NCBI GenBank assembly: GCA_026075535.2
Contig: AP026538.1
Location: 12,090,001-12,154,000, forward strand
Reading direction: 5' to 3'
Length of the DNA: 64,000 nucleotides
Source of the DNA: Tricholoma matsutake
Lineage: Eukaryota; Basidiomycota; Agaricomycetes; Agaricales; Tricholomataceae
Positions 16,035 to 47,636 of this stretch are shown here, piece by piece (position 1 is the stretch's first letter; each line of letters begins with the position of its first letter). The position numbers and the translations under genes are program-made. Below the pieces are notes generated by a model that worked only from the letters and a program-made list of their open reading frames with translations, had not been told where the DNA came from and did no database searches.

Positions 16035-16967
16035 CTAACTACTATCAAGGGTCACCATCTTGGCCACCCTGAGTACTTGGCCAATTCCATCTTTAGAGTC
16101 TGTACAGCAAGGAATCCATAATAATGTGGATCTCAATATTGAGAAGAACCTCATAGGAAACCATGTACCAAAACAAATCCACCAGTGATGGTGCATTACT
16201 GAGATATGGTGATGGCAGTGTGGCATTTCAGCCTCCTTGGCATGTTTGTTAATCTTGCCCAATATGGAAAAACCTCCCACCCCACTGTAGCCTTGTATTG
16301 AAAAACTTGCCACTGTTATGGCTCCCCTCAATCCTTTGCCCATTATCTTTATTTTTTGGGTCTCACCCTGTACAATGAAGTCAATGTGTATTCTGTAGGC
16401 CATGACTGGCCAACATGGCAGGTTTGCTCAATTTGGCAGCCACTCTCAAATAATACTCACAGGAAGCAAAGCACTCCAGGTAAAACCATGGTAAGCATGT
16501 CAACTTCTTCACAGCATCACAGACAACATACAAGCCAAGTTTGAAGACTTGAAAGTAGCTACTTTACTCTCAATTCTGTCTGATACCCTTAGGTGGCCAA
16601 GAACCCAACCTCTGATAGTACATAATCAGGCACAATTCCCAAAATGGTAATATGATGTCACTTCCACAGGCGCTTTGCCCGCGCTGGCCCCCCAGATCAC
16701 AAGCCTCGCAAATCCATTTTGTTGGAGTAGTTTCAAGCATGGTATTCACCCACAAGAGCCATCTTCACCCTCTCAAGCAGCTGCTCCAAGCTCCAGTGTC
16801 GGCACTTCAAATTCTTGAAGATACAATGTAATGCTGGAATGTTGTGGGTGCCAACAAGCTCAAGAAGTTCATCCCAGGTTACTTCGTGGCCATGAAGTCG
16901 AGCAAGTGCTTTGGAATCCTTAAGATACTATGCAAAGAAAGTCAGATAACACTCTAAGGCATGTTCG
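16035..16967. other. No supported gene; possible downstream part of the broken minus-strand gene
   Basis: A 122-residue minus frame (16403-16035) is open but I recognise nothing in it. The next feature may continue into this area. Sequence is CpG-poor. Confidence 0.3.
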
Positions 16968-17047
16968 TCATGTGTGAACAAGAACCTTGAATGTTAGATC
17001 CTTTAGATTCTGCTCCATAAGTTTCAGCTTCTCTCTAAGCGAGGTCT

Positions 17048-19202
17048 TCACACTGCCCCATATATTCTGCGTGGATCCGCACAGAATTACATGGACTCCA
17101 CGCAAATTTGCAATCCATACAAGAAACCATTTTAGCTGTGCAACAGGGTGTGCCAGTCTGCATGGATCTGTGCAGACTAACACAGATTCTGCATATTTCG
17201 TCCGTCCACATCCGTGATCAACCAGGTCGGACCAGCAAGGACATTCCGCATGCATCTGAGAAGACCATTTGAGCTTAGCAAAATAATGTCACAAATGGTG
17301 TTTGAACTTGTAGCCTCATGGTCAACCAATAAAGTACAGATGCACATTACCATTACACTACGCAGCCAGTGGTATGTTGTTGCTATTGATGCAACTACAT
17401 ATGACTGTTTGGCTTTGTATGACAAAGCACATAGCCGCATCATCAATGTTGCCAGCTCATCACTCACCACCACCACCATCGACGCTGGCAGCTCCCTCCC
17501 TCTCTTACCACCACCACCACTTCGTTACCCACCAACCCCACTCCAATGCCCTACAGACACCCATGATGACAAACACAGGGCCGGCAACACCATGCATGGC
17601 CACAAATGAGCCACCACATGCACAATGTGGCCCAAACGACATTTCACGTCGTTTGGGCTGCAGTAAGTTTTTTCTTTCATTCTCTCATATTCAATTTAAC
17701 TAATTTCTTTGTTTTCTTTGTTAGCACCAGCACGAAACCCCGGAAACGAGCATGCCACCTGGAACGTGGGTCCAAACAATGCAATCTGCATCGTTTGGGC
17801 CCTAGGTAAGTCTTTTTTTCCATTTTCTTTTTGTTTTTATAAACTAATTGATTTGTTTCTGTTGTTTTCTAGGTTCTAATCTACTGGTAATGACGGACTG
17901 ATGCAAGACAACCCAGACCCAACAACACCCATGCCAACGTCCTCCTCCCCATCCAAATGGGATATGAGGCTTTTGATAAGGGGTAGGAGGGTACTGGGAG
18001 ACCTGCAAAGCAGGATACCCACCTACCTACCCTCGCATGCTACATCACTGCCACATCACTGACCCCTCCAAACTAGCAGACCCCCAAAACAGATGATGCA
18101 CCCACCCCATGCCTGTGAGCCTCTGCTCGTAGGGTGGATCGTGAGTGTGTGCAGGCAATGACAACAATGACGCCGCCACCTACCAGCACCAGCACCCCCA
18201 GAACGCGAAGTATGGCCACCAACCATGATGGACGATGACAACAGGGCCAACGACACAACACCCGCCTCCAGCCCCATGAGCAACTGCTCGGGGGGTGGAT
18301 TGCAGGTGGAATGGCAATGATGACGAAGGGAATGCACAGTGGGAAGCATGACAACGAGCACCAAGGGACACAGGATGATGGGAATGACACAATGACAGCA
18401 ACCATGCAGGACAATGGGGACCACGATGGCAACAGAAGTAACAGATGAAAGCCACCCAGGACAACCCCCCGCAGGATGATGCAACCAGGAAGATGCACCA
18501 ACCATGATGCACCAACCACGACACTGAGGACAGCGCACCAAGGGCAGCTGGGGCCATAGGTAAGTTTTTTTCTTTTCTTATTTCTTTTACCACAGCAATG
18601 CATGCAGGACAATGGGCACCATGACAAGACACCACCAGGCCACCCCCTCCCCCACATTTTGCATGGGGAGGGTTTGTTTTTTGTTTTCTATACCCCCTCA
18701 CTCATGTTTTATGTAGGCGAGGGGATTTTCTTTTTGATTTATAATTGTCACCTTCCCCTCACATTGAATGCGAGGGCTTTTAAATATAATTATAGTACTC
18801 TTTAGTTAATGTTATTTGATTTTAATTATATAACAATGCACCTCCTTCGAGAGGTTTAAATAATTGAGTTTGAGTTTGAGTTTTGAGTGTCATAAATAAA
18901 CTTTATATTAGTAACAAATAATTCTCTGGTGGCTCAACTGGTTAAGCATACTTGTTTGTTATGTGAAGTTAGCATGAGGTCTTTAAGTTCAATCCTTGCT
19001 CTGCACAATCTTATTTTGTAGGCACTTCATGACTTTCATACAGTCTGAGAGACTCATGAGATATTAACTTGATAACATGAATTCTGCGTGGACTTGCCTG
19101 GATTCTGCATAGTCCGTGTGGACTAATACAGATTCTGCATAGTCTGTGTGGAGTCCTCATAGTCCATACGGATCTGTGCAGAACATATTGGGGAGTGTAA
19201 AT
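17048..19202. mobile_element. Non-autonomous TIR element 1 (2155 bp, TA target)
   Basis: The left end TTCACACTGCCCCATATATT and the inverted right end ATTTACACTCCCCAATATGT match imperfectly and continue into related subterminal repeats (TTCTGCRYRGATCC blocks). The right flank is TA (19203-19204); the left flank is TC where TA is expected. Removing the element with one TA rejoins the minus-strand reading frame on either side (SNDQLRA then TSLREKL), strong independent support for the edges. The interior has no convincing protein: Cys/Gly/His-rich open frames at 18056-18701 are low-complexity by-products. It shares interior blocks with element 2 (48503-50205). Confidence 0.75.
18926..19005 (+). 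other. tRNA-like (SINE-type) module inside element 1
   Basis: An A-box-like TGGCTCAACTGG (18930-18941) and a B-box-like AGTTCAATCC (18986-18995) have tRNA spacing. No full cloverleaf is evident, so this is a tRNA-derived internal promoter, not a tRNA gene. The same module lies at the same relative place in element 2. Confidence 0.6.
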
Positions 19203-20812
19203 TACTGCTCTAAGCTGGTCATTGCTCATTGCGTTATGATCAAGCCTCACCATGGGTTTTGTAGTACGTTCTTTGACGGCCGCAACAAGTGCACTTGTGT
19301 TCTGACATGTGAGACACGAATCAGACTTGCTAGGAGACATTCCACTGCAGTGAGGAGAGCAAATGCAAATGGTCGAGTTAAGGTGTTCAACAAAGATGAG
19401 GTTGTAGCCTGGCATGAAACACAATCTGGGATTGTGGATGGCAAATGGGTAGGTCACATATGGTGATCCCAAATCCCAATGAGACCCAGAACCTGGGCAT
19501 TGCAAGGGACCAGCTGGAGGCTGGGGTTGAAAGTGGCTGGGATCTTTGAGTATTCGGTCTAATTTGACTTCTGATGAGTAAAGTGAGTGAGCTTGAGATT
19601 GGTGTTGTTATGCACCTGGAAGCCCCAACTTGCATTTCTGTGTCCCTGCATGTTTATTAAGGGTATTGGTGCCAATTCTATCCTTTCCATGATTTACATA
19701 TTCATGACATATAGTACATAGGACTAGGTGGTTCCCATTTGAAGGGTCAAGCTTCTCGAGAGGTAGGCCAGACAGCTCAGCATCAGGATTGGTATAGTTC
19801 CATCATTTGATGAAAATGAAGATATATGAACAGAAGCATGAGAAGAAGGCTTTGATACATTATGTACAGTATCAATCCTCCATGATATTAGTGAAATGTC
19901 GGGTAGATGCATCACTCAGAGATAAAAACATGTGTCAAGAGCAGGAGAGATGTGTGTCACTTAATGGATGCCACTTTGATCATCACATACACCAACAATC
20001 TCCTTATTTGGGGGGCTGGGACATCAACCATGTCCATGATCACCTGCTTGTCTAAAACAAGCTCCAGATATCAAATTTTCCCCAAAGTTTGGGGGTTCCA
20101 ATTTTTTTTTTGCAGCCTGGGCTGGACTTACTAGCTGGGTCCATGTCCAGCATCCAGATTCCCAAGCACCCTTGGAATTTTGGCCCAGGGATCATGATTG
20201 GCAATAGCAATGTTTGAGCTGAGCATCATGCAGAAGACAGCAGATAGAAGGCCATGACTGCACCATCTTTACAGATTGAAGCAACATCTTGAGCCTCATA
20301 AGCTAATGATGCACCTATCAACAATCCATCATGAAACCAGGCCATACTGGTGCTAGTGATCACACATGATGTTAGATGTTCATCTCCATGGTAAACCACT
20401 CCTCTCAGGGTGTATTGAACATGGGTGGTGTTTCCACAGGTAATCCAGAGAACTGGAGAAAGAGATGGCACACTGGTTCCTAAGGTAGGTGTCACTCAGT
20501 TTCAGCATGTCATTACATAATCAAATAGTTGTCACTTGCCGCCAGTGAATGAGTGGCAAGGCCAAGCAAGCATACAAGGTTGGGCAGAAAAGCATGAGAA
20601 TCCGACTTGGTACACTAATATATATAATGTGGAATATCGAATGATTAGGACTGTACAATTTTTATATTTTGAAGCTGCAGCACTACAACAACTAGGTCAC
20701 TGTTACTAGGATTATAGGGATTATGTCAGACTATATGGCCAGTCATGTGTGTTCAAATGTGATCAGGCTTACAATCTGCTCATTGCACTCCTTACACCAT
20801 GTCTACCTTTTC

Positions 20813-22824
20813 TCGTGCAGTGTCCAAGTTCCTTTCTGAGATAACCTGGCACATCATTCTTGGGCGACAGGGTATGCAAGATCCATCCCTTGATGTGCAT
20901 GCAATAACCTTCTATTACTGTGACAATTGATATGAACACAGTTAATACAGGGTTTTTCCAGAAAGATTGTGGAAGCTGAACAGGAACTCACTGGAAATTC
21001 AGCTGATATCCAAGCAGCTCAAAAGGTCTTGTGGATTGAACCCAGTCGTATTGATAAAATTGGTGAGGGACATCTGTATAAAGCCGTCAACTGCGTGCTT
21101 GCTTACCGCATCCTGTATGTTTGCCAATGGGTCAAGAGTCCATCTGCTTCATTGCAAACTGCAGCAGTACCAACTTTGCTTGGCGCTCACAGTGATCTTC
21201 TCCAAAAGCTGGTGCATATGAATACCCTCCCCTGTCGAATGTAATCCATTGCCTTTTACTATTTGCAGAAAGCACAGAAGATGCAAAACTGGCCCAGCAT
21301 GCTCATGCAGGCCAAAACATCCCTCCAAAGCATTTTAGCATCCAACAGTGACTTGCCTGGATTCAATCCTCCACAAGACCCCATGCAACACTTGCTGAAC
21401 TCAATCATCAATTTCACAAAACAGAACAAGGGCCAGAAATGGCTCTCCAATTTTGAAGTCGCAGCAATGCATCTCAGTGTTCATCTGAAGGCATGTCTCT
21501 CAACACTCTGTTCGATCTAGAATAAATATGTTGCCATCTAGGGGCACTGGGACATAGTTGGCTCTCCACTAGAAGTTGCTGTCCAGAGGCAGGTGCAAAG
21601 CTGTCAAACAAATCACCTGCTCTCATCATTTCTCTTCAGTCAAGCTTTACAAATCCAGGGGTCCAGTCACAAGCGAATGAGTTGCCTGCACAACCCACTC
21701 AACATTGCGCTTTCCCTCTCGCCAATTGCACTCCTGCAAGACAAGATTATATGGAATGGGTTGGCTGGTAGCAAGTTTGTTCTAGAAGTTGGTTGCGACC
21801 ATTTTTCCTATTATGCTGCTTACTTACATTTGTTTATAGACACTACAGGTTTTTTCTGGTAATAAACCCCAACTGATGCTTGCCATTGAATTTGAAATAT
21901 GGGCAGCATTGATCGATGTGGCCAATGGCACCGCAGAGACTCTCCCATGATTGCAGCAAGCCCTTGCTTGCATTGAGCATATACTTGTGAATGAAAGCAT
22001 CGAAGAGATGTCAGGATGGATTGGTGGTGCGTTTATTACTGTGGGATGAGTAAGCCCTCTGACCAGCTGCCAGAGTGCAAAGAGTTAGCAAGACATGCAG
22101 CTGTTGAAGCAATGCATACCCCAGATGCAGCCCCTGGGAACAATGAAGAGGGCACACCTCATGAAGACTTGGCCACAACACAGGATGTAGGCCCCAGGCC
22201 AATGGTCCCGACACCATCACCACCACAAATCCCAGCGGGTGAACATGGCAAGTTGTGTTTTAATCTTGGAGTTAGTTGTAAATTGACAACTTGATTGCAG
22301 AGACAACTGGTGACAATTCCCCGCAGTCTCCTACACACAACCCTGAACCAGTGGAGGTTGAGCCCGAAGGCAGCCATTTGAATGCACCTGATGACATGTC
22401 AGAAAAGAGGAGAGGCAAGCCAGAGAAGAGAAGAAGCAGAAAAAAGATGAGAAGAACAGCGGCAACAAGAAGCAGTGAAATTGGCTGTGGCAAGAGCAAG
22501 AAAAGGCAAAGGCTGCCAACCTACAGATGCAGAAAAAATTGCCAAACTGAGAAAAAGATGATATGAATGTCAAAGACAAGAATGCAAAAGGGCAAAAAGG
22601 GAAAGGGAAAGGGAGAAGGGAGAGGGAGAGGGAGAGGGAGGAGCAAGACCAAAGACCAAGAGACCGATGATGAGACAGCGTTGAAATCCATGAAACTCGT
22701 GGATCTCAACATGAGCACCCCCATTCCACGCTTCATGAATGAACTCACCATCTTATGTTCCACTATGGTTGATCCCACCCCACCAGAGGAGGAACCAGTC
22801 AACCCTCTGATTGGTGATGAGTAG
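20813..22824 (+). pseudogene. Decayed multi-exon gene of unknown family with basic C-terminus
   Basis: Successive plus-strand blocks look like exons: about 20833-20913 (FSRAVSKFLSEITWHIILG), 20969-21244 (ADIQAAQKVLWIEPSRIDKI, HLYKAVNCVLAYRILYV), 21263-21510 (MQHLLNSIINFTKQNKGQKW), 22046-22249 (Pro/Glu-rich) and 22302-22824. A GC-AG or decayed GT-AG intron at about 22250-22301 joins the last two in frame. The C-terminal part is strongly basic (KKGKGKGEGRGRGRGRSK). Other joins need single-base corrections, so it is probably a pseudogene. I do not recognise the family. It faces away from the minus-strand gene at 16.9-20.5 kb and may belong to the same mobile or lineage-specific unit. Confidence 0.4.
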
Positions 22825-23535
22825 GATGCTTGAAACCCACCTGTTTCTCTCTCAAGGTCTCAAAGCATCTGATTCCATGTCTATGGACCTGGTTGGATAT
22901 ACACTAGGTGATACTTGATCAGTCCATTATTGTCTATAATTCTATTTCAGAAAACACAAGGACGTCAACAAGTCCAGGTCTTTGGACCATCAAGTCAAAC
23001 ACAGTCATACTGTCCATTGTTCCATGTATGTCCTATCCTGTACCCCTCATACAATTCCATCATGGTGATACTTAGATACCGTCTAAATATTGGGGCTATT
23101 CTATAGAGATTTACAGCACAGGCTCATGCCTTAGGCTCAGAAATTCTTAGGTTATATCATGGAAATGTCAGATTCCATTTAGGGGGTTTCACCTTGACCT
23201 GAGGCTGGTCAACGCGATGAACATTTGAAACCTCATTTAACTACCAATAATAGTCCCTAAATTATGCCTTTGACTTGACCTCATTCATCAGGAAATTGTG
23301 GAGATGCTGGTATTTCCAGTCAATAGTGACAAATAGCTATCACAATGTTATATAATGAGACCTGATTAGATACTTTTATCTTTACACTACTAGTAATTTA
23401 TTATCAGAGCTAACATTGGAATGTTATGACAGTATTTGAGTTCTGGGCTATTTTAGACAAGTCTGATGGAGGCATTGCAAAGCATGATATGTAGCTCACA
23501 ATTATGCTGGAAAATTGGAAAGCCATATGAGTATC

Positions 23536-32719: not shown

Positions 32720-35114
32720 CCTAAATTATGCCTTCAACTCAACGTTGGTGCAGTTGAAGAACATTCCCCGATGTCATTTCATGTGATCTCTGATAGAGTA
32801 AGATATACATCTTTTACTGAATGTGCCTTGGCTCACCACCCTTTGAGTCGAGGGACATGCTGGCATCATTAGTGAGACTTATATTTCACCATGAGTGGAA
32901 TGACTAGTTGTGTTGTTTACACCATTGTATCTTCAATGGCCATACATCTGTATTACAGTGTTGATGCAAGGTGACAATCACATTTGACCTCGACTCCCAT
33001 CCCTTCGACTTGAGTCATATTTCAGACATTGGTCAAGAAAATGTTCATCAAACAGTCGAGGTCAAATGTGATTGTCACCTTGCATTGACACTGTAATACA
33101 GATGTATGGCCATTGAAGATACAATGGTGTAAACAACACAACTAGTCATTCCACTCATGGTGAAATTAGGGTGTAGCACGGGTCACACTGTGGGTCTCAC
33201 TTACAATACCATACCTGCAACCTGTAACACCGTACTGGTACACACACCGCACCCGCAGGTACAGGTTACACCTGAAGGTTTTAATCAAACACTGCGGTAC
33301 CGCAGTATACTGTTGAAGTATTGATTTTTTTCATGAAACTAACTAACCTCCCTCATGCATAGTGAGGGAGGGGCTATGAAATTAATTAGTGAGAGCAACA
33401 AAAAAAGCTCCCTCGTGGTGGTTGGATTCCCTCTCTCTCGTCTCCATTGTGCCATCCCCTCCCCCTCCCCATTGCTCCCTGTTTCCACCCCATGATCAGT
33501 TGCTCGCAGCAGTGGATGGGGGTGCTGTTGTGGTAGTGGTGGTGGTGGTGGTGGTATGTTGTCATTGTCCCTATCCTCCCCAGCATTGTCATCGGGTCCT
33601 CGCTTTCTTCTGGTCCTCATTGTTGTCTGTCCCTTGTCCTCTTTGTCGTTGTTGTCAGTAGTCCTAGTTAGTACCTAAAAAGTTTGTTAGTTAACAAAAA
33701 ATCAAATGAGAAGAGAAAGAAAATACCTACAGCCCAAGAGATGTTGTCAACGTCTCTTGGGCCTTTTCCCCTCGGGATTCCCTTGTTGTCCCCATTGTCC
33801 CCATCCCCACCGCTCCCTATTTCTACCCCATGAGCAGTTGCTCATGGCGGCAGTTGGGGGTGCTATCATGGTGGTGGTGGGGTACTGGGATCCCGGGTCC
33901 TCCTTCATTGTTGTTATCCCCCTTTCCTGGCATGGCAGTGGTTCCCTCCTCTCCCTGCCTCCTCCCCGCCTCCCGTCGTTGGTTGTTGTCCCATCCTCAT
34001 CCTCATCCCTGTTGTCCTGTTGTCATCTGGTTCATTGTTGTCCTTTCATTGTCATTCATTGACTCGTCTCCTGTTGGCCTGATCGTTCCCATCCCTCCTT
34101 GTCCCTGTTGTCTTGTTGTTGTCTGGTTTGTCATTGTCCTTTCATTGTTATTTGTTCCCTCTCATCTCCCATTGGCCCCATTGTTCCCATCCTGTTGCTC
34201 CCCATTTCCACCCTGTGAGCAGTTGCTCACAGCGGTGGAGCAGGGTGCTGTGGTGGTGGTGGTGGTCTGTCATCATTGTTGTTATCATCCCTACCCTCCC
34301 CATCATCATCATCTGGTTCCCTAACCTCCCTGTCATCATTGTCATTGTTGTCTGGTCCTTATCCTGGACCTGGTTGACCTGACAGTCATCATCCTTGTTG
34401 TTCTCATCACCCTCATTGTCCCATCGTTCTTGCAGTTGCTCTCGTGGTCTTTGTTGTTGGTGATGGGTGGTCATAGATGGTGGGTCATTGGCTGGGGGTG
34501 CTGCTGTGTGGGTGGTACCCCTCTTCTTTGTCCTCCCCATCATCGCTTTCATCCACCATCTCTGTTGTTGTCAAGTAGTACAAACTGTAATCTAGAAAAA
34601 AGAACAGTTAGTTAATTGAACAAAACAAAAAACTTACCATTGTTGAGCTGAACCACTGAAATCTGGAAAAGACAACATTTAGTTGATCAAAAAAGATGAA
34701 CAAAACTTACTATTATGATGGGCGATGCAAAGTCGAGCTCATGGGTGAAGAGGAAAAAGTCCAGCTGGTGTTGATTGATGTCTGGCAATGGCCAGATCCA
34801 GCAATTCAAGCAACCCATCAATACCCGTGACACCACCAAAACAGGTATGGTATGTCACAGGTCCGGCATTTTGGCAACCATACCTGCACCAATCAAACCT
34901 GTGGGCCATTTACCGCGGGTTTACCCATACCCATGCTACACCCTAGGTGAAATATGAGTCTCACTAATGATGCTAGCATGTCCCTCGACTCGAAGTGTGG
35001 TGAATTGAGGCACATTTAATAAACCATGTAAATCTTACTCTATTGGAGATCACATGAAACAACATCTGGGAATGTTCTTCCTCCAATGAGGTCAAGTCAA
35101 AGGCATAATTTAGG
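32720..35114. repeat. Palindrome (foldback) with 275 bp arms, right arm split by an insertion
   Basis: The left arm 32720-32995 and the right arm 33054-33166 plus 34954-35114 are inverted copies of nearly equal length (276 and 274 bp) around a 58-bp spacer. Outer ends read CCTAAATTATGCC and GGCATAATTTAGG. The right arm is split by element 3. Partial direct copies of the arm lie at 23241-23281/32586-32719. On the right it abuts gypsy pol sequence. Confidence 0.8.
33167..34945. mobile_element. Non-autonomous hAT-like element 3 (1779 bp, 8-bp TSD)
   Basis: Terminal inverted repeats TAGGGTGTAGCAYGGGT, flanked by a perfect 8-bp duplication GGTGAAAT (33159-33166 and 34946-34953). An 8-bp duplication and TAGGG-type ends are hAT features. 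The interior has no transposase; it holds GT-rich ORFs, three GAGCAGTTGCTC-type hairpins (33492, 33829, 34216) and intron-like blocks also seen in elements 1 and 2. Confidence 0.85.
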
Positions 35115-35620
35115 TCTTGTGCTGCTACCTGAGATGGGCCGAATTCAAAGAGCACATCTTTTCGAGTAAGGTTGATTGGCACAGCTGCTTGATGTGCAAA
35201 ACTCTGAATGAAAATTTGACAAACTCCAATCGTTCCTAAGAACACCTTAACTTCTGTGAGTGTACGACATGGACCCCACTTCTGAATCTTCTGGATACAC
35301 GTCGGGTCAGCCATTCAACCTTGAATATTGCATCAATGACCTAAAATGATTATTTCGGTAACTGAAGCAAATAACTTGGGCCCTGAGAACGTTCCACCAC
35401 AATACTTCATGCGTTGGACGATACGATTCAGATTCTCGAGGTGCTCCCATATGAATTGTCGAATGCCTGAGTTGTCAGTGATTGTTTCGTAAGACCCACC
35501 AATCATTTGATATTCCGATTTTGGGCCCTTCATTGGTGTGTCATCAATATAAGGGATCGTGATATGAGGGACCTCGGGTTGTAGGATGAAAGGCATGAGC
35601 TTGTGCTGTAAATCTGTATA
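35115..35620 (-). pseudogene. pol: Gypsy pol fragment C (RT palm to connection)
   Basis: Two minus frames. 35596-35333 has HITIPYIDDTPMKGPKSEY (YIDD catalytic motif), IRQFIWEHLENLNRIVQRM and KYCGGTFSGPKL. 35314-35115 has IQKWGPCRTLTEVKVFLGTI, VCQIFIQSFAH and PINLTRKDVLFEFGPSQVAA. This is a distinct gypsy clade from A and B. The sequence breaks off at 35115 where the palindrome starts. A frame break lies near 35320. No LTRs identified. Confidence 0.75.
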
Positions 35621-35869
35621 GAATTGTCAGTTCAGACAAAGTTTATGGACAGAATACAATACTATTTAGTCAACTGCAGCAGTTTTCTAAGTAGGAGAGT
35701 AAATCTCTGAGGGGGGTGAATTGAATTAATTTTCTTTGGAGGAACAAACACCCTCCTTATATACCTAAAACTAAGAATAGATTTGTAAGCATAGATGAAT
35801 AAGGATGCCCTAAGGCCCTACAAATCATGACAAAAAAGTTCCTAACTGAGTCATTGTGGCATGTGTTTC

Positions 35870-36035
35870 AGAACATCTTCATGTGTTTCAGAAAATTCAA
35901 AGTCTACATGTGCTTCAGAAAAACTACATGTGGTTCAGAAAATCTCACGTGTGCTTCAGACAGAAAATCTCCATGTGCTTCAGAAAGTCTACATGTGCTT
36001 CAGAAAATCTCCATGTGCTTCAGAAAACCTACATC
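35870..36035 (+). repeat. Tandem repeat, CATGTGCTTCAGAAAATCT unit
   Basis: About seven imperfect copies of a 19-24 bp unit. Confidence 0.85.
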
Positions 36036-36054
36036 TATTAGGTTTCTTCATGGC

Positions 36055-36175
36055 TGTGCAAGGCTATGCAATAGCTGTGGAATGCTGTGGAATGCTGTAG
36101 AGTGCTGTAAAATGCTGTAAAATGGCTGTGCAAAGCTGTAGAAGGCTGTAGAAGGCTGTAGAATGCTGTAAAATG
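36055..36175 (+). repeat. Tandem repeat, GCTGTARAATG unit
   Basis: About ten imperfect copies of an 8-13 bp unit. Next to it, GATTACTTTGAT (36178) and ATCAAAGTAATC (36251) form an inverted repeat, and about 50 bp starting TTACTTTGATATGTA recur at 36356. Confidence 0.75.
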
Positions 36176-36841
36176 GCTGATTACTTTGATATGTACCTGG
36201 TGTGTGATTTGAATTACTATGAATTTCAGGAATTATGCCAAATTTCATGAAATCAAAGTAATCAGGGTGGGGTGGCAAATCATTAACCTGAGATGAAACC
36301 TAAACCCTATCTCTGTCCCATTTTTATTTATTTGAATGAAATATATCAATCAATTACTTTGATATGTATCTGGTGTGTGATTTGAATTACAATGAATTCC
36401 AGTGAGTTACGCCAAATTTCATAGAATTAAGCCAGATTTTGTGGAATTACATCAGATTTCATGAAATTATGCTGGATGTCTGCTATATAGTTGTATGTAA
36501 AGGAAATTATCACATAGATTGTTTATATAAGACTTTGAGTAATGGAATTCAATAATGGTCTTCAGATGTGTTGTAGGCTCTTGGTGACTTTAATGTCACA
36601 CTTGTCACATTTCATCACAAGCAAATGAAAACACCATATTTTGTGGCCTCAATTTCTCAACAACTGTTCTGCCAATTCCTTAGCTATTTGGTAGAGCTTA
36701 TCTATCATATACTACCTACATTTCGTCCCTCCAAAGCTTTCCCAATTTTGTGTTTCACTCTATAAGATAAGTCTTATAGAAGTGCTGTATAATGAATTGT
36801 ACATAGGTACTTAGTACATAACTGGTCAGGACTGAAGTTGG

Positions 36842-36869
36842 TTCTGGACCAGTTCTAACTGGTCCAGAA
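36842..36869. repeat. Perfect 13-bp inverted repeat (hairpin)
   Basis: TTCTGGACCAGTT and AACTGGTCCAGAA separated by two bases. It sits in a GGTCCAGTCC-rich patch (36830-36960) resembling the ends of the hAT-like element at 39778-42202. Otherwise 36270-36970 holds nothing I can name. Confidence 0.7.
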
Positions 36870-36972
36870 ACTGCTCAAAACTGTAGTGGACCAGTCCTGT
36901 AGGGTCCAGTCCACCCTCAAAGAGGGTGAAAAACTGGACTGGACTGGACCTGAAAGCACTAGTACTACATTC

Positions 36973-37575
36973 TTTCCTGTTGCCATACTTCTGAGTCGTT
37001 TCTATCAGGTAAGAACTGGAGCTATCTTTGAAGCGATGGTGACCTTTACTGTTTATATACTTTATCACTTAACAGATCACCCACTTCAATGTTAACATAT
37101 ATGATTACATATGTATTACCTACAAGATTCTTTTCTGTCCCATGCTTTGTTTCTATCAGGTAAGAATGGGAGCTATTGTCAAAATGGTCATGCACCTTTA
37201 CTGATTACATGCATACTATCACTTATAAGATCACCCTCTTCAACCTATGCAATTACATATTAACATACATGGTTACATAGGTATCACCTACAAGTTCACT
37301 TTGGGCATCATTATCTTATACACTTTATCACTTATCAGATGATTGTGCACTTTACTGATTACATGCCTATCACTTATCAGATCACCCTCTTCAACATTAA
37401 TGTATCTGATTACATATGTATCACCTACAAGATTCTTTTCTGTTGCCGTGCTTTGTTTCTATCAGGTAAGAATGGGAGCTATTGTCAAAACAATCGTGCA
37501 CCTTTACTGCTTACATGCCTATCACTTATCAGATCACCCTCTTCAACATACGTGATTGCATATGTATCACCTAAC
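36973..37575 (+). repeat. Tandem repeat array with splice-site-like core
   Basis: Three copies (about 36973, 37133 and 37437) of a unit of up to 304 bp that begins TTCTGTTGCC and contains TTTCTATCAGGTAAGAATGG and CACTTATCAGATCACC. TATCAG/GTAAG resembles an acceptor touching a donor. Confidence 0.75.
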
Positions 37576-39392
37576 TTTGGGTATCATCTTGTAGTAGACC
37601 CCACTCGGTATGGCTTGACCTTGATACAAATTTTGGCAGTCAAATTATGTACTGATACTTGGACATCACTGGCAGTCAAGGAGATATATGAGATATTCAT
37701 TTCTTGTGCCATAGGAGTTAGCTAGACCCAAGTTTCACATGACATCAGTGTACATCAATCTGCCTTGCATTCAGCATTCAGGCTATTCTGACTTAGCACA
37801 ATGGTCCATGAAGATTGTTCCTACTTTTCTATCAGGCACCATCACCTTTGATCTAATGATTCCCGTCAGTCGGTGCTAAAGCCCAGGTGATCGTTGCCAC
37901 AATGAAGAAGGCAAAGGGGACCAACACACCGATGGGACATTGGTCACTTGATGTAGAGAGTATCAACTCTTGGTGTGGGCCAAAGTTGCTGAAGAAGAAC
38001 ATGACATGCAACCTTTCAAAGTATGCCTATGCAAGCGTGATTGAGGAACAAATCGTCACTGAGTACAGGGAGGATATGTTTGAAGAGATACCAGAGACAG
38101 CAACTCTCCATTGGGCAACAGCACTTGTGCTGCAGGATGCACTTGTGCTGACAAAGATCATTGTCAAGAAGCAGAATAAAGCCCCCATGTTAGGCTTGTC
38201 AGTATTCACATTCACGGATGGTATTGATGCACTCCATGTCACTCAAACTCACACCAATGTTGAACCTTACATTGACAAGAGACACACATGGACAGCATTC
38301 CTACATTATCACAAAGAAACTCAGGATATCATCCAGGTGGTCGAGCATAAAGATGTGGCGGTGGCTATCCCTGGCTGAAAGACAACCGCAGTGGCTGTTC
38401 ATAACAAGATTAATGAGCTCATTGAGGTGAGTCAAATGTCCATACTACTGCCATTGATCATTCAACAAGCATACAAAGGTGTTAAATATACAAGCGGCCA
38501 TACATCGCAAAATGGTGGACTCAGGGGATGCAGTAGAGGATATTGACCCTTATGATGAGAAGTGGGAAGTTGATGATACCGATATTGTGGTGATGGGTAA
38601 CCATCAGAGAAAGGCCATCCACCCAGAGTTTGAAGTACATGATTCAGTGACCAAAACTCTGACAATATATCTAACAAGGCAGCAGGAAGACAATAATGAA
38701 GATTGAGAGAAAGAAACTGGTCAAGAAGGTGATCAAGAGTATGACAGTCATTGTCCATTCACATAATTACATCACTGAACAAATATATCTACATCAGAGC
38801 AGGCTGAGCCTGCATGCATAATCCAGGACACAGTTGAGCAAGCACAACAATCCAGTCATTTTGACATGATCATGGCAGATGAAGCTGCACCAGATGTATC
38901 AGCAAAAGTACACCAACCATGTGGCAAAGATCGGCCCCAGAAATCAATGGCAGTGGCAGACTGAACCCACCACAAATCAATGGATGTGGACTCACAGGTC
39001 AAATCCATGTCCAAGGGTGTAACCGATATAACTCCAGGTATGGACTGCTCATGGTCATACTAATATATACGCTAGATGGATTGACATATATAAGGTGGCC
39101 ACATGCAACATGAGAAGGGTTTGATGAACAAAGATATGCAACATAGCCATGAGGCAACAGAACGTGAGTTGCGGTGTTCTATGTCCAAAGGTCAAACACC
39201 CCCAGCAAGCGATGCCGATATATCGGACAACAATGAACATGGTGAAGAAGGCCACAAGCCAATGGATTGTGACTCATGGCACATCTGGCCACTTCAGACA
39301 GCAGGTATGTCAACAGAGTGCACCACACTGTCATAGACAAAGGATAATGATAACACATATTGAACTAGGTGTAAACACTCAAGATCAATTGT

Positions 39393-39650
39393 CAAACAGC
39401 CATGAGTCAACAGATGTTGAGTTGCAGCATATAACAAGGATTGTTCCAGGTCCAAAATCATCAAACAGCCACGAGTTGACACATGTTGAGTCATGGTGTA
39501 CAATGCAGAATGTTCCAAATGATGTAGCATTGAACAGCTGCAAGTCAACTTGTGTTGAGTCATGGCATATAACAAGGATTGTTCCAGGTCCAATATCATC
39601 AAACAGCTGCGAGTCAACACATGTTGAGTCACAGCATATATCATCCACTG
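39393..39650 (+). repeat. In-frame 69-bp tandem repeat in the large gene
   Basis: About 3.7 copies, each encoding a 23-residue unit related to NSHESTDVELQHITRIVPG. The unit length is a multiple of three, so frame is kept. Confidence 0.85.
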
Positions 39651-40610
39651 TGCAAAATCCAAGTGCCAGTGATGCCCACTCAACCAGCGATGATGATGGT
39701 ACTAGCAATATTATACTGGCCCTTGAGCTACCATTAATTTTATCCAGGTGCCATGTCCCTGATAGTGCTGCAAAACTAGGGATGGTAATGTTCAGTTCAG
39801 AACCATGGTTCAGAACCTGAACAAACCTGTAGATTGTATGTAGTATATGGGACATAGGTACTATAAGTTAATCCACAAATCATGGTGCTCGCATGTAGGT
39901 GCATTGTTTATGTTACTAGATCATGTGTCCTTGCATACCCATTGTTTACATCTGTTTATCAACATCACTGAACAATTGGCAACTCACACTAGAAAGTTCA
40001 GCATAACTCCTCAGACCAATGGCTATGCATCATAAGACAACACATAGCAAGGCACCACCCTCAACTATGTTGAGGTGCCATTTATCACACCATAAGTGTA
40101 CATGATCACATCTTTGATGCGTGTACTATTTTTAGCACATCCCTTTGATGCACCATCTCATAGACACCTTTGTGTCTCTTATCCCTTTGACTCTTTATGT
40201 AGCTGAACTCACTTATATATAGGGTAGGTAGTTATCCAATCACCTCAGTTGCTGTACAGAGACTGAGGTGAGTATTCTAGACATTATGATATTACAGACC
40301 AATACTTACTGTACTTATAGCTATACTCTGATTACGCTAGGTACAGTTATTGTATTCATATAGTTGCTTGTACAGACAGCTATACTCTGATTATGCTAGG
40401 TTGATTTTCTACAAACTATACAACGTACACATCATATAGTCAGAGGTATAGTCAAGTCGTCAGCATCAGCACATGGATCAAGCTGGTACAAATATTAGTC
40501 AGAATACAACCATGCCACTAGTACTTTCACATCCACTTACTTGAGTCTTTGGTGTTTTATGCTAAAGAACAAGGGAATCGCCACAGAGTTACTGCCTCTT
40601 AATAACATCC

Positions 40611-40950
40611 ACTTGGCATGTACACTAAGTGGTTTCTTGTTCTCTCATTTCCATTGCTCGGTGTCACCTGTTTGTTGAATATCTTTAGAACACCATATCA
40701 TCCACTCGGTGTGTACGCTAAGTGGTTTCTTGTTCTCTCATTTCCATCGCTTGGTGTTGCCTGTTTGTTGAATATCTTTAGAACACCATATCTTCACTCA
40801 TCAGGTTTCCATGAGCCGTGCATGTTTTCTTCCTCTTCCACCCCTCTTCCACATGTTCCTTATGCATTTTCTACATGTTCCTTATGTGCATCTTCTATGT
40901 GTTCCTTACATGTTTTCTAGACATTCCTTACATGTTTTCTATGTGTTCCC
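40611..40950 (+). repeat. Two tandem repeats inside hAT-like element 4
   Basis: Two copies of an 87-bp unit (40611-40697, 40698-40792; TAAGTGGTTTCTTGTTCTCT core) followed by several copies of a roughly 20-bp ACATGTTCCTTATG unit (40849-40950). Confidence 0.8.
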
Positions 40951-41132
40951 TGCTCCACTCTAGTAGGAGTAGGTGGCAGCTTTGGACTCTGCTGAAACTG
41001 TTGGAGTGGGCTGCTGCATTATGCTGCTATGCATTCTCTGCTTCACCCTGGTAGAAATAGGCAGGGCCGGCTTTGGACTCTGCTGAAACTATTGGGGTGG
41101 GCTTTGTCTGTCTTACTGTCTATCTCTTTTTA

Positions 41133-41469
41133 CTGTCGAACACTGCTGCAAACCAACTAGCCCTTGAAGAGCTGTTCAGGGACCCCAGCATCAAGAGAAT
41201 TGCTGGGCATGCATCATCATTGTTTAAAACCTACTTCCCTCAGATGCACACTTATTATCAGGAGACTCTGGAAGCCCTCCTCAAAGCACATCCCCATCTC
41301 CTACCTGCATTTCCCCATGCTGCTCCAGGAGGGGGTCATATTCCTTGGTGTGCTGCCAGCTCAAATGTTGGTGAACAGTATTGTTTTTAGCTGTCCTAAT
41401 TTTTTTGCAGAAGCTTCTAATTTCAGCAATGTTTTGAGTCAATCTGAAAACTTGAACTTTCTAGTGTGA
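41133..41469 (+). pseudogene. Fragment resembling TET/JBP-type dioxygenase proteins
   Basis: The frame 41073-41390 contains LALEELFRDPSIKRIAGHAS, FKTYFPQMHTYYQETLEALL and HPHLLPAF, similar to what I remember of the region before the iron-binding core in agaricomycete TET/JBP-like 2-oxoglutarate dioxygenase proteins, which are often transposon-linked. Another frame then reads FAEASNFSNVLSQSENLNF, vaguely like the start of the core. The iron-binding HxD and later His are not seen, so at most this is a decayed fragment. The match is from memory and short. Confidence 0.3.
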
Positions 41470-42889
41470 CTGTTGATTGAACTCCTGATCATGACATTGT
41501 GTACTGGGTTACCAGATGCAACATTCTTACCTGCTTTTCTACACTACAATTCATGCATTATAGTTTTCCCTGTCTTGTCTCCTTTGCCAAACTTAGTCTA
41601 CAATTCGATGGTCTACAATTGTGTCCAAGTCCGAGTCACCATCACTGCATTGCTTAACTGCTTATGGACTTAGCTTGAGGTGCTGTGCTGTGCTTTTGAT
41701 GTGCCGATTGTCCCTTTGGCCACATTGCACTATGTATATCATGTCTAAATTGCTGTAGGCTTTGGGCTTGTACTAAAGGTGGTCATCAGAACACCCACAC
41801 ACCCACCTGAATGCTTTTGTGTGCATTGTTGTGGGATCTCTTTCAAATTTCTAGTTTGACATTTTGCACTCGGGAAATCGGTCCATATCTATTCTATTTT
41901 ACTGCCTTGAGCATGCACTGTGAGAGTGAGCACAATTCTGGACATAATTCTGGATTGTGCACCAGACTTTGTGCAGCGTGCAGTGCATTGTCTTCAGAGA
42001 AAATTTATTGTTGTTGTTTTTAATACATATCTACATCCAGTTCATGGTTCAGACTGCTTGAGAACCAGAACCTGACCATTTTGAACCAAACCAATGGTCC
42101 AGTCCAAGGTTCGCTAGAATCTACAGACCAAACCAATAGTCTGGTTCTGGGTTCTCCAAAATCCCTTAAAGAACTGGACTGAACCGAACCTTACCATCTC
42201 TATGCAAAACACACACAAGTCATTGAGCAATGGCTCGGAGCGGGCATCATCAGAGTTGACAGCTTTGACAGAGCATGAACTTGCAGGGTTCCCTGTGGAT
42301 CAGTCTCCTGGTAGTGAGATCATGGACTATGAGGTCACCCTGGGGGTTGGTGATGATGGTGTCAGATGAGGACCACATCATGGATATCAACACTCCAGCG
42401 GGTAGATACTGCCATTTGTTTTAGTTCATGCTATGTTGTTGTATGATACTAACATTTAGAACTGATATAGATCCTGATACCAATACCCCTCCTAAACCTA
42501 ACCATCGGTCAACATCCAAGTGTGCTCAGCCTGAGAGTGGTCTCAGTCCTCGTGCATCCATGTAATTCATTATGCCATCTTTTCATTCTATTAATGTTGT
42601 TATCATTATAATCCAGCAAATTGCACTGCCAATCGTCAGTGCTGGAAGAACACCACCGATGAGAGTGATGATGGGATGGAGGATGACACCATATGCCAAC
42701 ATACAAACTTATAACTAGTTGTAAGTGCACTCCGTCCTGTATTCCCTCCCTCATTTATCATCTATGCTTTCTGATTATTACTGATATGTAATCGATTCTG
42801 TACATGTACAATTACTCATGTCCCTGTACACTGTACATCATATTGGCCTGGTGAACAGTTCTGCCTGAAAAAAATGTGTTATTGAGATC

Positions 42890-45800
42890 ACTGAATTGAC
42901 ATGACATCAATACATGTTGGCTGCAGGGGTTATTGCTTGCCAGCTCAACGTCCCCTTGTTTATACCCCCATCCTCCAATCTAGACAACATCTTCGCGTAC
43001 ATCTCTGTCTTGTCTATTATGATGGACTTTGAGGCTCAAGAACTGTTAACAGTACCCTTCTATGTTGGGCTGTCTCCACTCAACCTTCAGGCTGATGATG
43101 CACCAGATCAGAATGTTGCCCTTGAAGCAGCATTCTGTGCAGTCTCTGCACTCAATCCAGATGGTGACAAGTTTTTGGATGCTCCTGTTATGATGAAGAC
43201 CTTGGGTTATTTCAAACACATATACAACACATGCAACACTTTGATTGCACTGGAACTGCTCACTAAACACATGAATATCGACACGTACAGTACTGATTTC
43301 ACAACGTCACCAAACAACAATATGTTGGCATGGGATCCAGACCACCACTTCATCGACTTCATGATTTGTGTACTGTGTGGGTTAGGCTTAGCCACACTTT
43401 TGCTGAATCATCATAGGGATCATCGATTCAAATTTACATTTGAGCTTTCACATGTGTATTGGACATTCAGCCCCAAATATGCGAAGTTGGGTTTTAATCC
43501 CTCAGGCACGATGCTTTGGATTGGGTGCTCCACATCATCAGAAGATGTGTGGCTTGGTTGGGCTCTGAATGGGTCATTGAATGCTCAATGCAAGGATGTC
43601 AAACCTCCCACTTGTGAAGGGAGCATGACACTCTCCTGCCAGCATTACTGGACAACTATCATGTTTCTGGCATTGATGCTGAGTGCAATAGGCTATTGAG
43701 ACATAATCGTCAGGGACACATACCCTGATCTTGAAAAGGAGGATGATTATCTACATGCTACAAATTTAATGTGAGTACAGCTATTTGTCATACTCTGCTG
43801 CAAATCAAGAATTCTTGACTTGCGGCTCATGTCAAAATGAAATGAGGGACAATGGGGAGCACTATTCATGCATATATTATGCAGCCAAAAGCTGTGAGGC
43901 AACCAATGGTGGCTCACAGCTTGATATGTCATTTTGTGTGGGCCCATGCATTGTATACCGCACATGGGTGAGGCTGTGAGTAGATGGTAGTTGGCCCCAC
44001 AAGACCATGTGATTCATCAATGAGATCACATTGTATACTGACAATGCTTTCATACAGGATTAGGACTGTGTCACTCAAGTTTCTCAAACTCCGGGAACTA
44101 GACTGAAAAATACAACTTGGCTTTGCCAGGTGGGTTGATGGTGCACCCATTGCATATAAGGATGATGGGTTCATTGTAGACTGAACACCCATGGTAATTA
44201 CATCACATTATGGGCAAAATCAGGACATTGGCATTACAGCAGCAGATGTGGCAGCTGATGAAGATAACTGGTGAACTGACCAGGACTTTTCCCAGATACA
44301 ATATATTACAATGGAACTTGCTACCCATGTTGTGTAAGTCAAGTACATTTCTTCTTTGAAAACTATCAAATATGACATTTGTTCACTCAGCGTGCACAAA
44401 GCGAGTGCCTGGAAAGACCAGAGCCTTGATGACTTTTGGGATGTATACCATGAAGGGGTTTGGACATCTGCAGATCGGACATACAGAGAAGAGATAAGTA
44501 TGGAAGAACTTGCAGATATGGACATGTTGGATAAATCAGGACACAAAGTCCCAGTTTATACTGAAAATGGATATCAAATCCAATGACGGGTTGTGCAGTT
44601 TAGGAAAAGTGTAAAGCCACATGGGGTTCTGATGGACCTTACTCGGATTAATGAGTTATTCAAAGAAGATCTAGATGATGTGTATCTAGAAGGCCAACCA
44701 GGTCCATCTTCATCTGAGTATAGTGTGTATCCCCAAGCAGGAATGTGGACTGCTGGACATTTTCAAGTGCATGGCTTGATGACAAGATTTTATTCGAGGG
44801 TGGACACTGGAGATTATCAATAAATGTATTGCAGAGGCACAGGGGCAAGCACAGGATGTTAGGGATGAGATGGACAAGGAAAACATCAAGGAGATCTCTG
44901 AAACAATAAACCCAGCGATTACAGGAGTATTGTGTCAAGGGTATAATGCGGTGATGCATTCAACTTGAGGTCGGTCAAATCAACACCACAATGCACAGTT
45001 TGCTTGATAACCAATGCACTTGCTGAGGGGTGGGCCACTACTGATATTACCAAAAGGGCTGCAAGAGATCTCAGGACTACATGTGCATACACACTGCCTC
45101 ATAGCAGCTTCTGAGAGAAAATTGCCAATCCAGAAATCAAATGCGATCTACAGTTGGAGAGTGTGTACTTTGTTGACATGTTGGCATTACCTGTGGAAAT
45201 GCAGACCAGAGAGTAAGTGCATATATTGTGCCATCACATGATGAATCTGAATTGACGGTCCCCATCCAGTGGACTTTCAAATAACATTATCCAACCATTG
45301 GCGAGCATGTGGGGCAATTCAACACTGATTGATGAGCTGAAAAGATGTGTTGTGCTCATTAAACCAGAGGTAAGATGCATTTGAATTGTCCACAATTTTC
45401 TGACATGTTAAATACAACATTGAGGCATACCCACAAGTTTATGTTTGGATGACATATCCTATCATGATGCTGCTGGAGCAACTTTGGAAGGATGGCAAAA
45501 TGGAGATGGCTAATAACTGGACACCATCACCCATTACAGTGGAACTGTGTTCTGTTGTAGAATGTGCTCTCAATTACATGCACATGGGAAATGCAGCAGT
45601 GATTGCAATGTTGGTCATGAATTCACTGTGGATCAGGTGATCCATTGTGCAAGATGGCCTTCTGTGCTTCAACCCGAGCATTGTGACCATCCGGGCAGGC
45701 AAATCACCTATTGTCAAGATGGATAAGTGGGCATTTGATGAACAGAAAAACCAACCATGGACTGCATCAAAGCAGGCCCAGTGTCTCACATATGGGGGAA

Positions 45801-47636
45801 GGGCACTTCAATGTACATTCAATCCTGTTTCTATTTCAGTTTCATGTCATTGGTAATCCTGTCCCTCACCATTTATTGGTTCATGGATTGACTGAGGGAT
45901 TGTATTTGTTGGATCTAATAAAATGTCACAACTCATCTGACCTCGACTTGTTGAGTGGCATTGACAATGCGGCGGGAGGCTGCAAGTCACAACATCTCAA
46001 CTCACGGCATGATAACACAATCTTTTGATCATCATCAGAGGTGGTTCGGTTGATGATCAATTTGCTAAGATCTCTTGACAGATCTTTTTTTGCCAATTTT
46101 GCCATGGCAGTTGCTGCGATCAGGCCGATCCAGGGGATAGTCATGCATTTGAGCCCTATGGTTGCCGGAGCACAGTCCATCACATTCCATGCCATTTCCA
46201 TGTTCATCCAAGACTGTAAAGATCTGGTCACAAGCAATGTCACCATGTCAATCAAACAGGCTCTACATGGTATCGATGAACATCAGCAACCCCATGCAGA
46301 ATGTTGCAAGCTGGCACTGAGCTCCTGGAATAAATGCCAACATCCACTGGTATGGACAAATGAGGGTGGACCACATAATGGAACATATCAGAAACTTATC
46401 ACATTGCTCAACAAGAACATGGATGAGGCGCCATCCACACTCCCAGAGGCAGGTGAGAACCTCAGGTATCACCAGCTTACATCAAAGCTTTATAAGATGG
46501 GTCATGCAGAAAAACCACTTGCAGTGGTGGCACCCATCACAGCCAATGGGGCATTCATCCATGCTTTAGGAGTTGCAATAAAAGTCATTGGATGTTGGGC
46601 TCAGTGTGCAGAACTTGCGGAAGCATTTACCATATCAATCTTTGAAACCATGCTATCCAAAATGCAAATCCAGTTTGCACGATTGCACAATCCAGGGGGT
46701 AGGGCATACACTGTCTGGCATGACCATTGGTTGATTCTGCAGCGGGCACCAGCTCAAGGAGCTGCAGTATTGATGATAACAGACTCTGAAGAAAGGGAGA
46801 GTGCATCAGGTATTGTGGCAAGTCAGGCTGCTGATACAAACAAGTCAGTGCCATGGACAATACCAGCAAACCTGAGTAACATGGGAGTGCTTTGGGAAAA
46901 AACAGTACTGCCATGTGAGTGGGAGCTAAAGCATGCCTCACTGGACCAGACACATACAAAAGCAGGGGCAGGATATATTTGGGATACATATTCATATGTG
47001 TTTAAAGAATATGATGGTAATGTATGGTGGCACAATATGTCCTTGGTGTGGGTGATACTGTTCACCAAGATGGCACCACATGTTTTCATGGAATTGGATA
47101 AACCACTGGAGGGAAGGAATGAGAAGGAGCTAACTGCAGCAGTATGTCAGATGCCATGGGTAGAAACTTGATCAAAAACACACAAGGGGGTGACAGGCAG
47201 ACCTCAATATGTTATGATGTTGTCAACCACAATCATGGCACTGCTGGACACTAATTTGCCACTTTTGGCATATATGAGGACTAACAAGAACAGTTTTGGG
47301 GAGCCATGGACAACTAAACATGGTATGTAAATATGGCATCATGTGCTTTTGATGTTCTGAAGAGTTATACAGGTATGAAAGAAATCAATGCCAAAAACAT
47401 TGTGTATGGGGTTTGGAAGAGTAAAAACTTCAGGATTCTTAGTGTGAGCTAAGTTCAATTTGAACTGGGAAATGTTTTCACTTGCAGAGCTGAGGCCCAC
47501 ATATGTCAAGGTGATGAAGATGTTACATGAAGGCCCATGTGGGGAGTATTGTGCCATGCAAGTGATCTTTGGGACAGAGGTAGCAGTCCATGCTGGGAGG
47601 CAAGGGTATGTTATTGCACCAGCGTCGGCTACATGA
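42890..47636 (+). pseudogene. Very large multi-exon gene of unknown family, C-terminal part
   Basis: Blocks: 42890-43765 (ELLTVPFYVGLSPLNLQADD, VALEAAFCAVSALNPDGDKF, LGYFKHIYNTCNTLIALELL, TMLWIGCSTSSEDVWLGW), 43798-44331, 44356-44823, 44824-44990, 45000-45210, 45270-45371, 45420-45795, 45839-47320, 47374-47440 and 47487-47636. The longest open run is 46041-47171 (IRPIQGIVMHLSPMVAGAQS, AYTVWHDHWLILQRAPAQGA, PHVFMELDKPLEGRNEKEL). At least eight stops are TGA where Arg is expected (for example 43697-43699). The last exon ends at TGA 47634-47636, directly at a LINE tail. No catalytic motif recognised. I have a vague memory of similar long proteins in agaricomycete genomes, none with a known function. 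Confidence 0.5.

What the first reader, a model, noticed from the sequence alone, without database searches (positions are those of the whole stretch)
37911..47636. A very large, undescribed-looking many-exon gene (candidate new family or element)
After removing the hAT-like insertion, about 7.3 kb on the plus strand reads as 15-20 exons separated by 50-65 bp GT-AG introns, with most joins in frame. Exons on both sides of 42.7-42.9 kb also seem to connect (ITELT, stop, HQYMLAAGVIACQ), so the two halves may be one protein of roughly 2000 residues. I see no known catalytic domain. It carries the same CGA-to-TGA decay as the transposons around it, so it may itself be mobile or belong to a multi-gene element with the genes at 16.9-20.5 and 20.8-22.8 kb. 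The link to those genes is inference.
Basis: partly seen in the sequence, partly recalled or inferred. Interest (0 to 1): 0.8.

Follow-up and report, generated by a model that had tools for sequence, protein, structure and literature searches.

The report
Decayed two-gene relic in matsutake
The stretch most likely holds the broken remains of two neighbouring mushroom genes, one of them from an uncharacterised gene family with unbroken relatives in other sequence collections, rather than a single giant new gene.

Summary
The many-exon coding relic is real, but is best read as two adjacent genes.

Gene B (43,022-47,636; about 1,266 codons, 11 exons modelled) belongs to an uncharacterised family tagged PF26608. 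A profile search found 21 relatives besides the matsutake copy; 17 are near full length for exon 1, and 16 of those begin 7-20 residues before the same motif, as the window does. Its 8 internal stops are all TGA; CpG observed/expected is 0.18.

Gene A (37,860 to about 42,700) is split by a 2,426-bp hAT-type insertion. It is weakly, collinearly similar to a gene just upstream of another B copy on C2. A third locus (C4) probably repeats the A-then-B order, but most A copies lack B.

The only DNA-level copy found is a 14.2-kb duplicate (98.6%) that includes the hAT and stops inside gene B. No shared element ends were seen. The link to 16.9-22.8 kb is not supported. No known domain was found and both structure models were unusable. 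I rate it a decayed member of an uncharacterised family, with a possible A-B cassette as the interesting residue.

The parts
37860..42700 (+). Gene A relic (5'-truncated; 6 exons modelled before the hAT insertion, approximate tail after it). Exons modelled: 37860-38426, 38479-38627, 38686-38738, 38798-39037, 39095-39304, 39369-39529
   Evidence: Gene model; weak collinear similarity to the gene upstream of gene B at C2:12.97M; 69-bp tandem repeat inside; the end at about 42,700 is inferred
39777..42202 (.). hAT-type insertion inside gene A, many copies in the genome; 22-bp TIRs alike at 19 of 22
39769..39776 (.). Target site duplication TGCAAAAC, left copy
42203..42210 (.). Target site duplication TGCAAAAC, right copy
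43022..47636 (+). Gene B relic (PF26608 family), about 1,266 codons in my model, with internal TGA at 43697, 44104, 44182, 44272, 44584, 45112, 45638 and 46026; the last codon (47634-47636) is also TGA and may be the true stop
43022..43770 (+). Gene B exon 1: the conserved ~250-residue PF26608-tagged part
   Evidence: end read from the sequence
44058..44333 (+). Gene B exon 2 (three TGA)
   Evidence: tblastx to the C2, C5 and C8 loci; frame
44391..45781 (+). Gene B middle exons: 44391-44722, 44787-44933, 44999-45212, 45270-45369, 45425-45781 (junctions approximate)
   Evidence: Gene models; collinear matches to C5
45842..47145 (+). Gene B longest exon; the junction with the previous exon is not resolved
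47197..47636 (+). Gene B last exons: 47197-47322, 47373-47420, 47488-47636 (stop included)
   Evidence: Matches to C5 and C13:944k; model
33054..47241 (+). Segment duplicated at C1:9,769,794-9,783,974 (98.6%), including the hAT; right end cuts gene B

Best explanation
The interval is the decayed remains of two adjacent, same-strand genes. Gene B (43,022-47,636) is a member of the uncharacterised PF26608 family and encoded a protein of about 1,266 residues. Gene A (37,860 to about 42,700) is the 3' part of a larger gene whose relative at C2 carries an N-terminal half (missing here), a long repeat-bearing tail and a basic end. What the sequence shows of the history: CpG-type decay put TGA stops into both genes; a hAT element entered gene A; later a 14.2-kb stretch carrying A, the hAT and most of B was copied 2.35 Mb away on the same chromosome, and both copies have changed since without visible constraint. 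The order of the hAT and the first stops is not known. The working mechanism is inference only: A acts on DNA through its N-terminal half, whose motifs (PWNQRPL...GGHH in the C2 copy, GGGRHH in the C4 copy) remind me of ParB/sulfiredoxin-like proteins, and B is its large partner or scaffold; the pair is kept at low copy and is repeatedly duplicated and silenced. That the family belongs to mushroom-forming fungi is also inference, since the sources of the relatives are not named. Subjective probabilities: two separate genes 0.9; B in the PF26608 family 0.95; A and B a functional pair 0.5; ParB-like action 0.2.
For: Two genes: of 21 relatives of B exon 1, 17 are near full length; in 16 of these the start Met lies 7-20 residues before the conserved [PH]F motif (window: 11), and the exception (P0014) has an internal Met 13 residues before it, after a stretch that is not conserved. 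At C2 the A-family DNA similarity ends at 12,972,745 and B starts at 12,972,011, with stops in all three frames between. At C2:13.58M an A copy ends at the same place with nothing like B in the next 2.2 kb. B as one gene: C5 is collinear with it from exon 2 to the end. Pairing: A then B on one strand in the window, at C2:12.97M, and probably at C4: an A relative (E 4.2e-4; residues 32-475), then a 39-residue B fragment (E 1.3e-6) 9.4 kb downstream. Window A against the C2 A protein: score 68, reached by 1 of 2000 shuffles; against its collinear part by 0 of 2000. Decay: CpG o/e 0.18 in B, 0.42 window, 1.02 at 11.3-15.6 kb; 146 of 163 substitutions between duplicates are transitions. Differences: 36 in 3,524 B-exon bases, 5 in the B introns, 30 in the hAT; codon positions 11, 14, 11 (exon 2 one base out of frame). 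hAT older than the duplication: in both copies.
Against: Of the 10 close A-family loci, 9 have no B hit within 100 kb among those listed, one of two distant A hits (C2:665k) likewise, and the C8 B copy has no A in the 5.5 kb upstream that I searched. The window A similarity is weak: 19% over 186 residues; phmmer leaves it below its inclusion threshold (E 0.033 in a one-sequence search) and tblastn gives E 0.11. The C4 pair rests on a short, stop-ridden B fragment and most of the DNA between was not read. A gene caller's start is not proof of a true start. No profile supports the ParB reading: Pfam, NCBIfam and PDB sequences gave nothing relevant. Both AlphaFold models are too poor to interpret (mean pLDDT 47 and 32).
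Confidence: 0.5

Rival explanations
1. Ordinary host genes: B is a vertically inherited, shrinking paralogue family with no partner. The A-B neighbourhoods are accidents, and the copies died because they lie in repeat-rich methylated DNA.
For: B is low copy: about 10 places counting fragments. The tree has four starred groups, and the T. matsutake copies fall in three of them next to proteins from other sources (at least 3 label changes forced by starred branches, from which P0021 and P0023 were left out). No element ends were found. Nine of 10 close A loci lack B.
Against: None of the roughly 10 places was seen to hold an intact gene, odd for a needed host gene, though only parts were read. 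The A-B order recurs at C2 and probably C4; 12 A loci and 10 B places in 161 Mb would give about 0.015 pairs within 10 kb by chance (my arithmetic, assuming uniform placement).
Confidence: 0.4
2. A and B are the core of an undescribed low-copy mobile or selfish element, here truncated.
For: Dispersed positions, CpG decay like that of the surrounding repeats, and multiplication of the A family: 10 loci (the query's own included), most pieces about 80-90% identical; 7 of 10 lie within 0.3 Mb of a chromosome end (expected fraction 0.048).
Against: No shared termini, TIRs or target duplications were found; no transposase, integrase, helicase or polymerase domain; nine of the ten close A loci lack B. 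Copies at chromosome ends can spread by recombination between ends. The duplicate of the window is a truncated segment, not an element copy.
Confidence: 0.2
3. One protein of about 2000 residues.
For: Same strand, short gap, an open stretch leading into 43,022, and one doubtful 24-residue tblastx stretch to C2 upstream of B.
Against: Start Met of B in relatives, an A copy that ends without B, and stops in all frames between A and B at C2.
Confidence: 0.05

Closest known systems
Pfam PF26608 (uncharacterised; model not held here, its name and description seen in no call)
   Same: Gene B exon 1 aligns over its full length with 17 near full-length proteins that carry this tag; invariant residues in the 20-row alignment include W107, H112, D115, GLGL (123-126), N132, E177, D178, W180 and W183 in P0011 numbering
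   Different: The window copy has 8 internal TGA stops; the ~1,000 residues downstream of exon 1 are not part of the tagged stretch
KDZ (Kyakuja, Dileera, Zisupton) and Plavaka transposons
   Same: Described in agaricomycete genomes, where transposons face methylation-based silencing (abstract and passages of PMC12730594); that their genes are large with many exons is recalled
   Different: No Pfam match to any transposase in gene A or B; low copy; no TIR or TSD found
hAT DNA transposons (the insertion only)
   Same: 8-bp target duplication, short TIRs, many dispersed copies
   Different: Only 2.4 kb; its own coding capacity was not examined
ParB/sulfiredoxin-like fold proteins (lead from memory, for gene A relatives)
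   Same: GGGRHH motif in the C4 copy, GGHH and a 'WTVKVYD' stretch in the C2 copy
   Different: No relevant profile match at E up to 10; this part is missing from the window copy

Membership tests
PF26608 family (gene B) | Sequence similarity of the ~250-residue first exon to tagged members | tested here: met
   22 rows at E <= 5e-10 including the 99%-identical P0002; 20 of 22 rows carry the tag, P0021 and P0023 do not
PF26608 family (gene B) | Score above the curated cut-off of the Pfam model | not testable with these tools
   Model absent from the held Pfam copy; the tag is the collection's precomputed one
PF26608 family (gene B) | Start and end of the exon shared with members | tested here: met
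   start Met 7-20 residues before the motif in 16 of 17 near full-length relatives; ATNLM-type end; in the window a GTGAGT donor there
Mobile element (any) | Several DNA-level copies with the same two ends | tested here: not met
   One duplicate only among 40 of 888 scored candidates; right end inside a conserved exon
KDZ or Plavaka transposon | Transposase domain | tested here: not met
   Pfam scans of window exons and of spliced models with X at stops: no family at its cut-off. Of the window's gene A only the first exon was scanned
KDZ or Plavaka transposon | TIRs and target duplications | tested here: inconclusive
   The ends of the only duplicate show none by eye; the ends of an original A-B unit, if there was one, are unknown
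hAT (insertion 39777-42202) | 8-bp target site duplication and TIRs | tested here: met
hAT (insertion 39777-42202) | hAT transposase | not tested
   Insertion not translated separately
ParB/sulfiredoxin-like fold (gene A relatives) | Profile match | tested here: not met
ParB/sulfiredoxin-like fold (gene A relatives) | Fold | not testable with these tools
   The loci that hold this half are not among the sources the folding tool lists as accepted; none was sent

The most novel reading that the evidence does not exclude
Gene A (N-terminal DNA-acting half, long disordered tail) plus gene B (PF26608) form an undescribed two-protein selfish or genome-defence cassette of mushroom-forming fungi that moves at low copy, favours chromosome ends, and is silenced by cytosine methylation soon after it lands.
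Probability: 0.15. Interest if true: 0.7.

Novelty: new member of a known kind. Interest (0 to 1): 0.35.

Why it matters
Gene B ties a family known here only by a Pfam tag to a full gene of about 1,266 residues with a likely start, an exon order and a possible recurrent neighbour. That turns an anonymous domain into a testable two-gene system. If the pair proves mobile or selfish, it would be a fungal element type with none of the known transposase domains. If it is only a dying host family, it is a clear example of CpG-decay-driven gene loss in a repeat-rich mushroom genome.

Tried and rejected
Structure route: exon 1 of B (first row P0011, 20 rows; P0021 and P0023 left out) gave mean pLDDT 47, and the long-exon protein P0001 alone gave 32; no fold search was run because low-confidence models give meaningless matches. 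Sequence routes to a function: Pfam, NCBIfam and PDB sequences gave no match at a curated cut-off or a convincing E-value; MmgE/PrpD (E 0.023 and 0.085), Pkip-1 (0.0057), Zw10_N (0.086) and coiled-coil hits (0.019 and up) are below cut-off and were rejected. Viral contigs: two scans with single relatives (P0015, P0007) found nothing. Single-sequence searches with window exons found one 99%-identical protein each; the profile search did better. Literature searches: PF26608, 0 papers; DUF8190 or DUF8191, names that I recalled as possibly belonging to this tag, 0 papers; ParB, Agaricomycetes, transposon and mushroom terms, nothing relevant in the rows listed. Only these searches stand behind 'undescribed'. 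One protein across both halves was rejected on start-codon evidence; the link to 16.9-22.8 kb.

Full report
Where this is. The window is contig C1:12,090,001-12,154,000 of a genome with 161,040,721 bases in 13 contigs. That total, and every contig length that I saw, are those of Tricholoma matsutake TMA_r1.1 (PMC10211490, passages seen). Repeats make up 71.6% of that genome according to the paper.

The observation. A home-made splice-aware scorer (then hand adjustment) recovers exon chains on the plus strand in both halves. Chance is excluded by protein-level collinearity with loci that do not appear among the DNA matches (40 of 888 candidates scored). C5 matches ten stretches from 44,110 to 47,630; C2 matches 42,558-44,331 and C8 43,046-44,247. 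The first C2 stretch (42,558-42,629) lies upstream of gene B and is doubtful. C5 also has part of exon 1, separated from the rest by several kb that include a copy of the retrotransposon at the start of the window.

Two genes, not one. A profile from five copies of exon 1 found 22 proteins in the large collection; 20 carry the tag PF26608. Twenty-one are not the matsutake copy; I fetched 20 of them, and P0023, a 61-residue fragment, was read only from file. Seventeen are near full length. In 16 of the 17 the start Met lies 7-20 residues before the conserved [PH]F motif (11 in the window, from the Met at 43,022); the seventeenth has a non-conserved extension and an internal Met 13 residues before the motif. 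A start chosen by a gene caller is not proof. Two further facts agree. At C2 the A-family similarity stops at 12,972,745 and B begins at 12,972,011, with stops in all three frames between. At C2:13.58M an A copy ends at the same place with nothing like B in the next 2.2 kb.

Gene B. It spans 43,022-47,636, with 11 exons and about 1,266 codons in my model; the junctions near 44,950 and 45,800 are not resolved. It holds 8 internal stops, all TGA; its last codon is TGA too. A 99%-identical protein from another source (P0002, organism not named) reads through exon 1 without a stop, and so does the duplicate, so that stop is not in every copy. CpG observed/expected is 0.18 in B, 0.42 in the window and 1.02 in the open genes at 11.3-15.6 kb. 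This fits decay of methylated CpG, with CGA turning into TGA. The tree of 25 rows has four starred groups; matsutake copies fall in three (the deepest branches are weak, 75/67). Places in this genome: seven exon-1 places, one more fragment, and later exons at C5, C13:944k and C4:9.656M. None was seen intact, although only parts of most were read.

Gene A. The first half runs from 37,860, in six modelled exons, to the hAT insertion and on to about 42,700. Its first exons are weakly similar (19% over 186 residues) to residues 615-770 of the gene just upstream of B at C2; 1 of 2000 shuffles reached that score against the whole protein and 0 of 2000 against the collinear part. phmmer leaves it below its inclusion threshold, and tblastn of the C2 protein gives E 0.11, so the link rests on collinearity and position as well as score. 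Both continue into a stretch with internal repeats. The first 600 or so residues of the C2 model have no counterpart in the window; instead there are dispersed repeats at 33.2-35.6 kb and, from 35.6 kb, sequence matched only in the duplicate (40 of 2832 candidates scored). The C2 gene A belongs to a family of 10 loci (itself included; most pieces about 80-90% identical) plus two distant hits. Seven of the 10 lie within 0.3 Mb of a chromosome end (expected fraction 0.048, binomial tail 6.6e-8), although copies at chromosome ends are not independent.

Do A and B belong together? For: same order and strand in the window, at C2:12.97M, and probably at C4, where a distant A relative (E 4.2e-4; residues 32-475) lies 9.4 kb upstream of a 39-residue B fragment. 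Against: nine of the ten close A loci and one of the two distant ones have no listed B hit within 100 kb, and the C8 B copy has no A in the 5.5 kb searched upstream. I put the pairing at about even odds.

History. The hAT insertion (39,777-42,202; TSD TGCAAAAC; TIRs 19 of 22) is in both the window and the duplicate, so it is older than the duplication. The duplicate covers 33,054-47,241 at 98.6% and stops inside gene B. Its left end lies in a short inverted repeat, with 58 bp inverted between the two copies. Of 163 substitutions 146 are transitions. B exons differ at 36 of 3,524 bases, 11, 14 and 11 on the three codon positions (exon 2 one base out of frame), with no sign of constraint. Of 117 DNA matches listed, only the window and this duplicate go beyond the hAT interval.

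The proposed link to 16.9-22.8 kb. That stretch is made of dispersed repeats: a roughly 2.2-kb unit at about 17,041-19,209 sitting inside another repeat, and a third from about 20,540 to 22,900 (40 of 3404 candidates scored). None of the 93 matches listed lies within 100 kb of a gene-B place other than the window. A direct comparison found relatives of the 17.0-19.2 kb unit (71-88%) downstream of B at C2 and about 33 kb upstream of the duplicate; a 43-bp match at C13:944k is negligible, and the 20.5-22.9 kb unit was at none of the 12 fetched loci compared nor in the 100 kb around the duplicate. With a high-copy unit on differing sides, the link is not supported.

Function. No library match helps, and both predicted models are unusable. 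The only lead is a motif resemblance, recalled and borne out by no profile, of A's N-terminal half to ParB/sulfiredoxin-like proteins. My committed guess is a DNA-acting protein (A) with a large partner (B), at about 0.2.

Verdict. A real, decayed and mostly unexplained two-gene relic. B is a new, broken member of an uncharacterised family. It is neither a giant new gene nor, on present evidence, an element.

Noticed in passing
33054-47241 and C1:9769794-9783974: 14.2-kb segmental duplication at 98.6%, 146 of 163 substitutions transitions; left end in a short inverted repeat with 58 bp flipped between the copies.
   Followed up: partly
39777-42202: A 2.4-kb hAT-type family; 115 of the 117 DNA matches listed fall within about 15 bp of this interval.
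   Followed up: partly
39392-39640: 69-bp tandem repeat inside gene A's coding tail; the C2 gene A has its own protein repeat (DSWD.VSNTD.LLEVMQS) in its tail.
   Followed up: no
L036, L038; ends of C2, C11, C12, C13: The gene-A family is concentrated at chromosome ends: 7 of 10 close loci within 0.3 Mb, one 17.5 kb from the end of C11.
   Followed up: partly
16800-22900: Nested dispersed repeats: a ~2.2-kb unit at about 17041-19209 inside another repeat, and a third at about 20540-22900; relatives of the first near gene B at C2 and upstream of the duplicate.
   Followed up: partly
11314-15559: Open, CpG-normal stretch (o/e 1.02) with no Pfam match in the three ORFs tested: possibly intact genes amid decayed DNA.
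   Followed up: no
33166-34946 and 35115-35611: A dispersed repeat, and a ~480-bp element with 31 further copies listed, upstream of gene A.
   Followed up: no
L023 and L024 (C4:13.371M, C13:9.511M): Two loci alike over 3 kb (95.6% and 98.5% in two pieces), one 39 kb from a chromosome end, carry the same truncated piece of gene B exon 1.
   Followed up: partly
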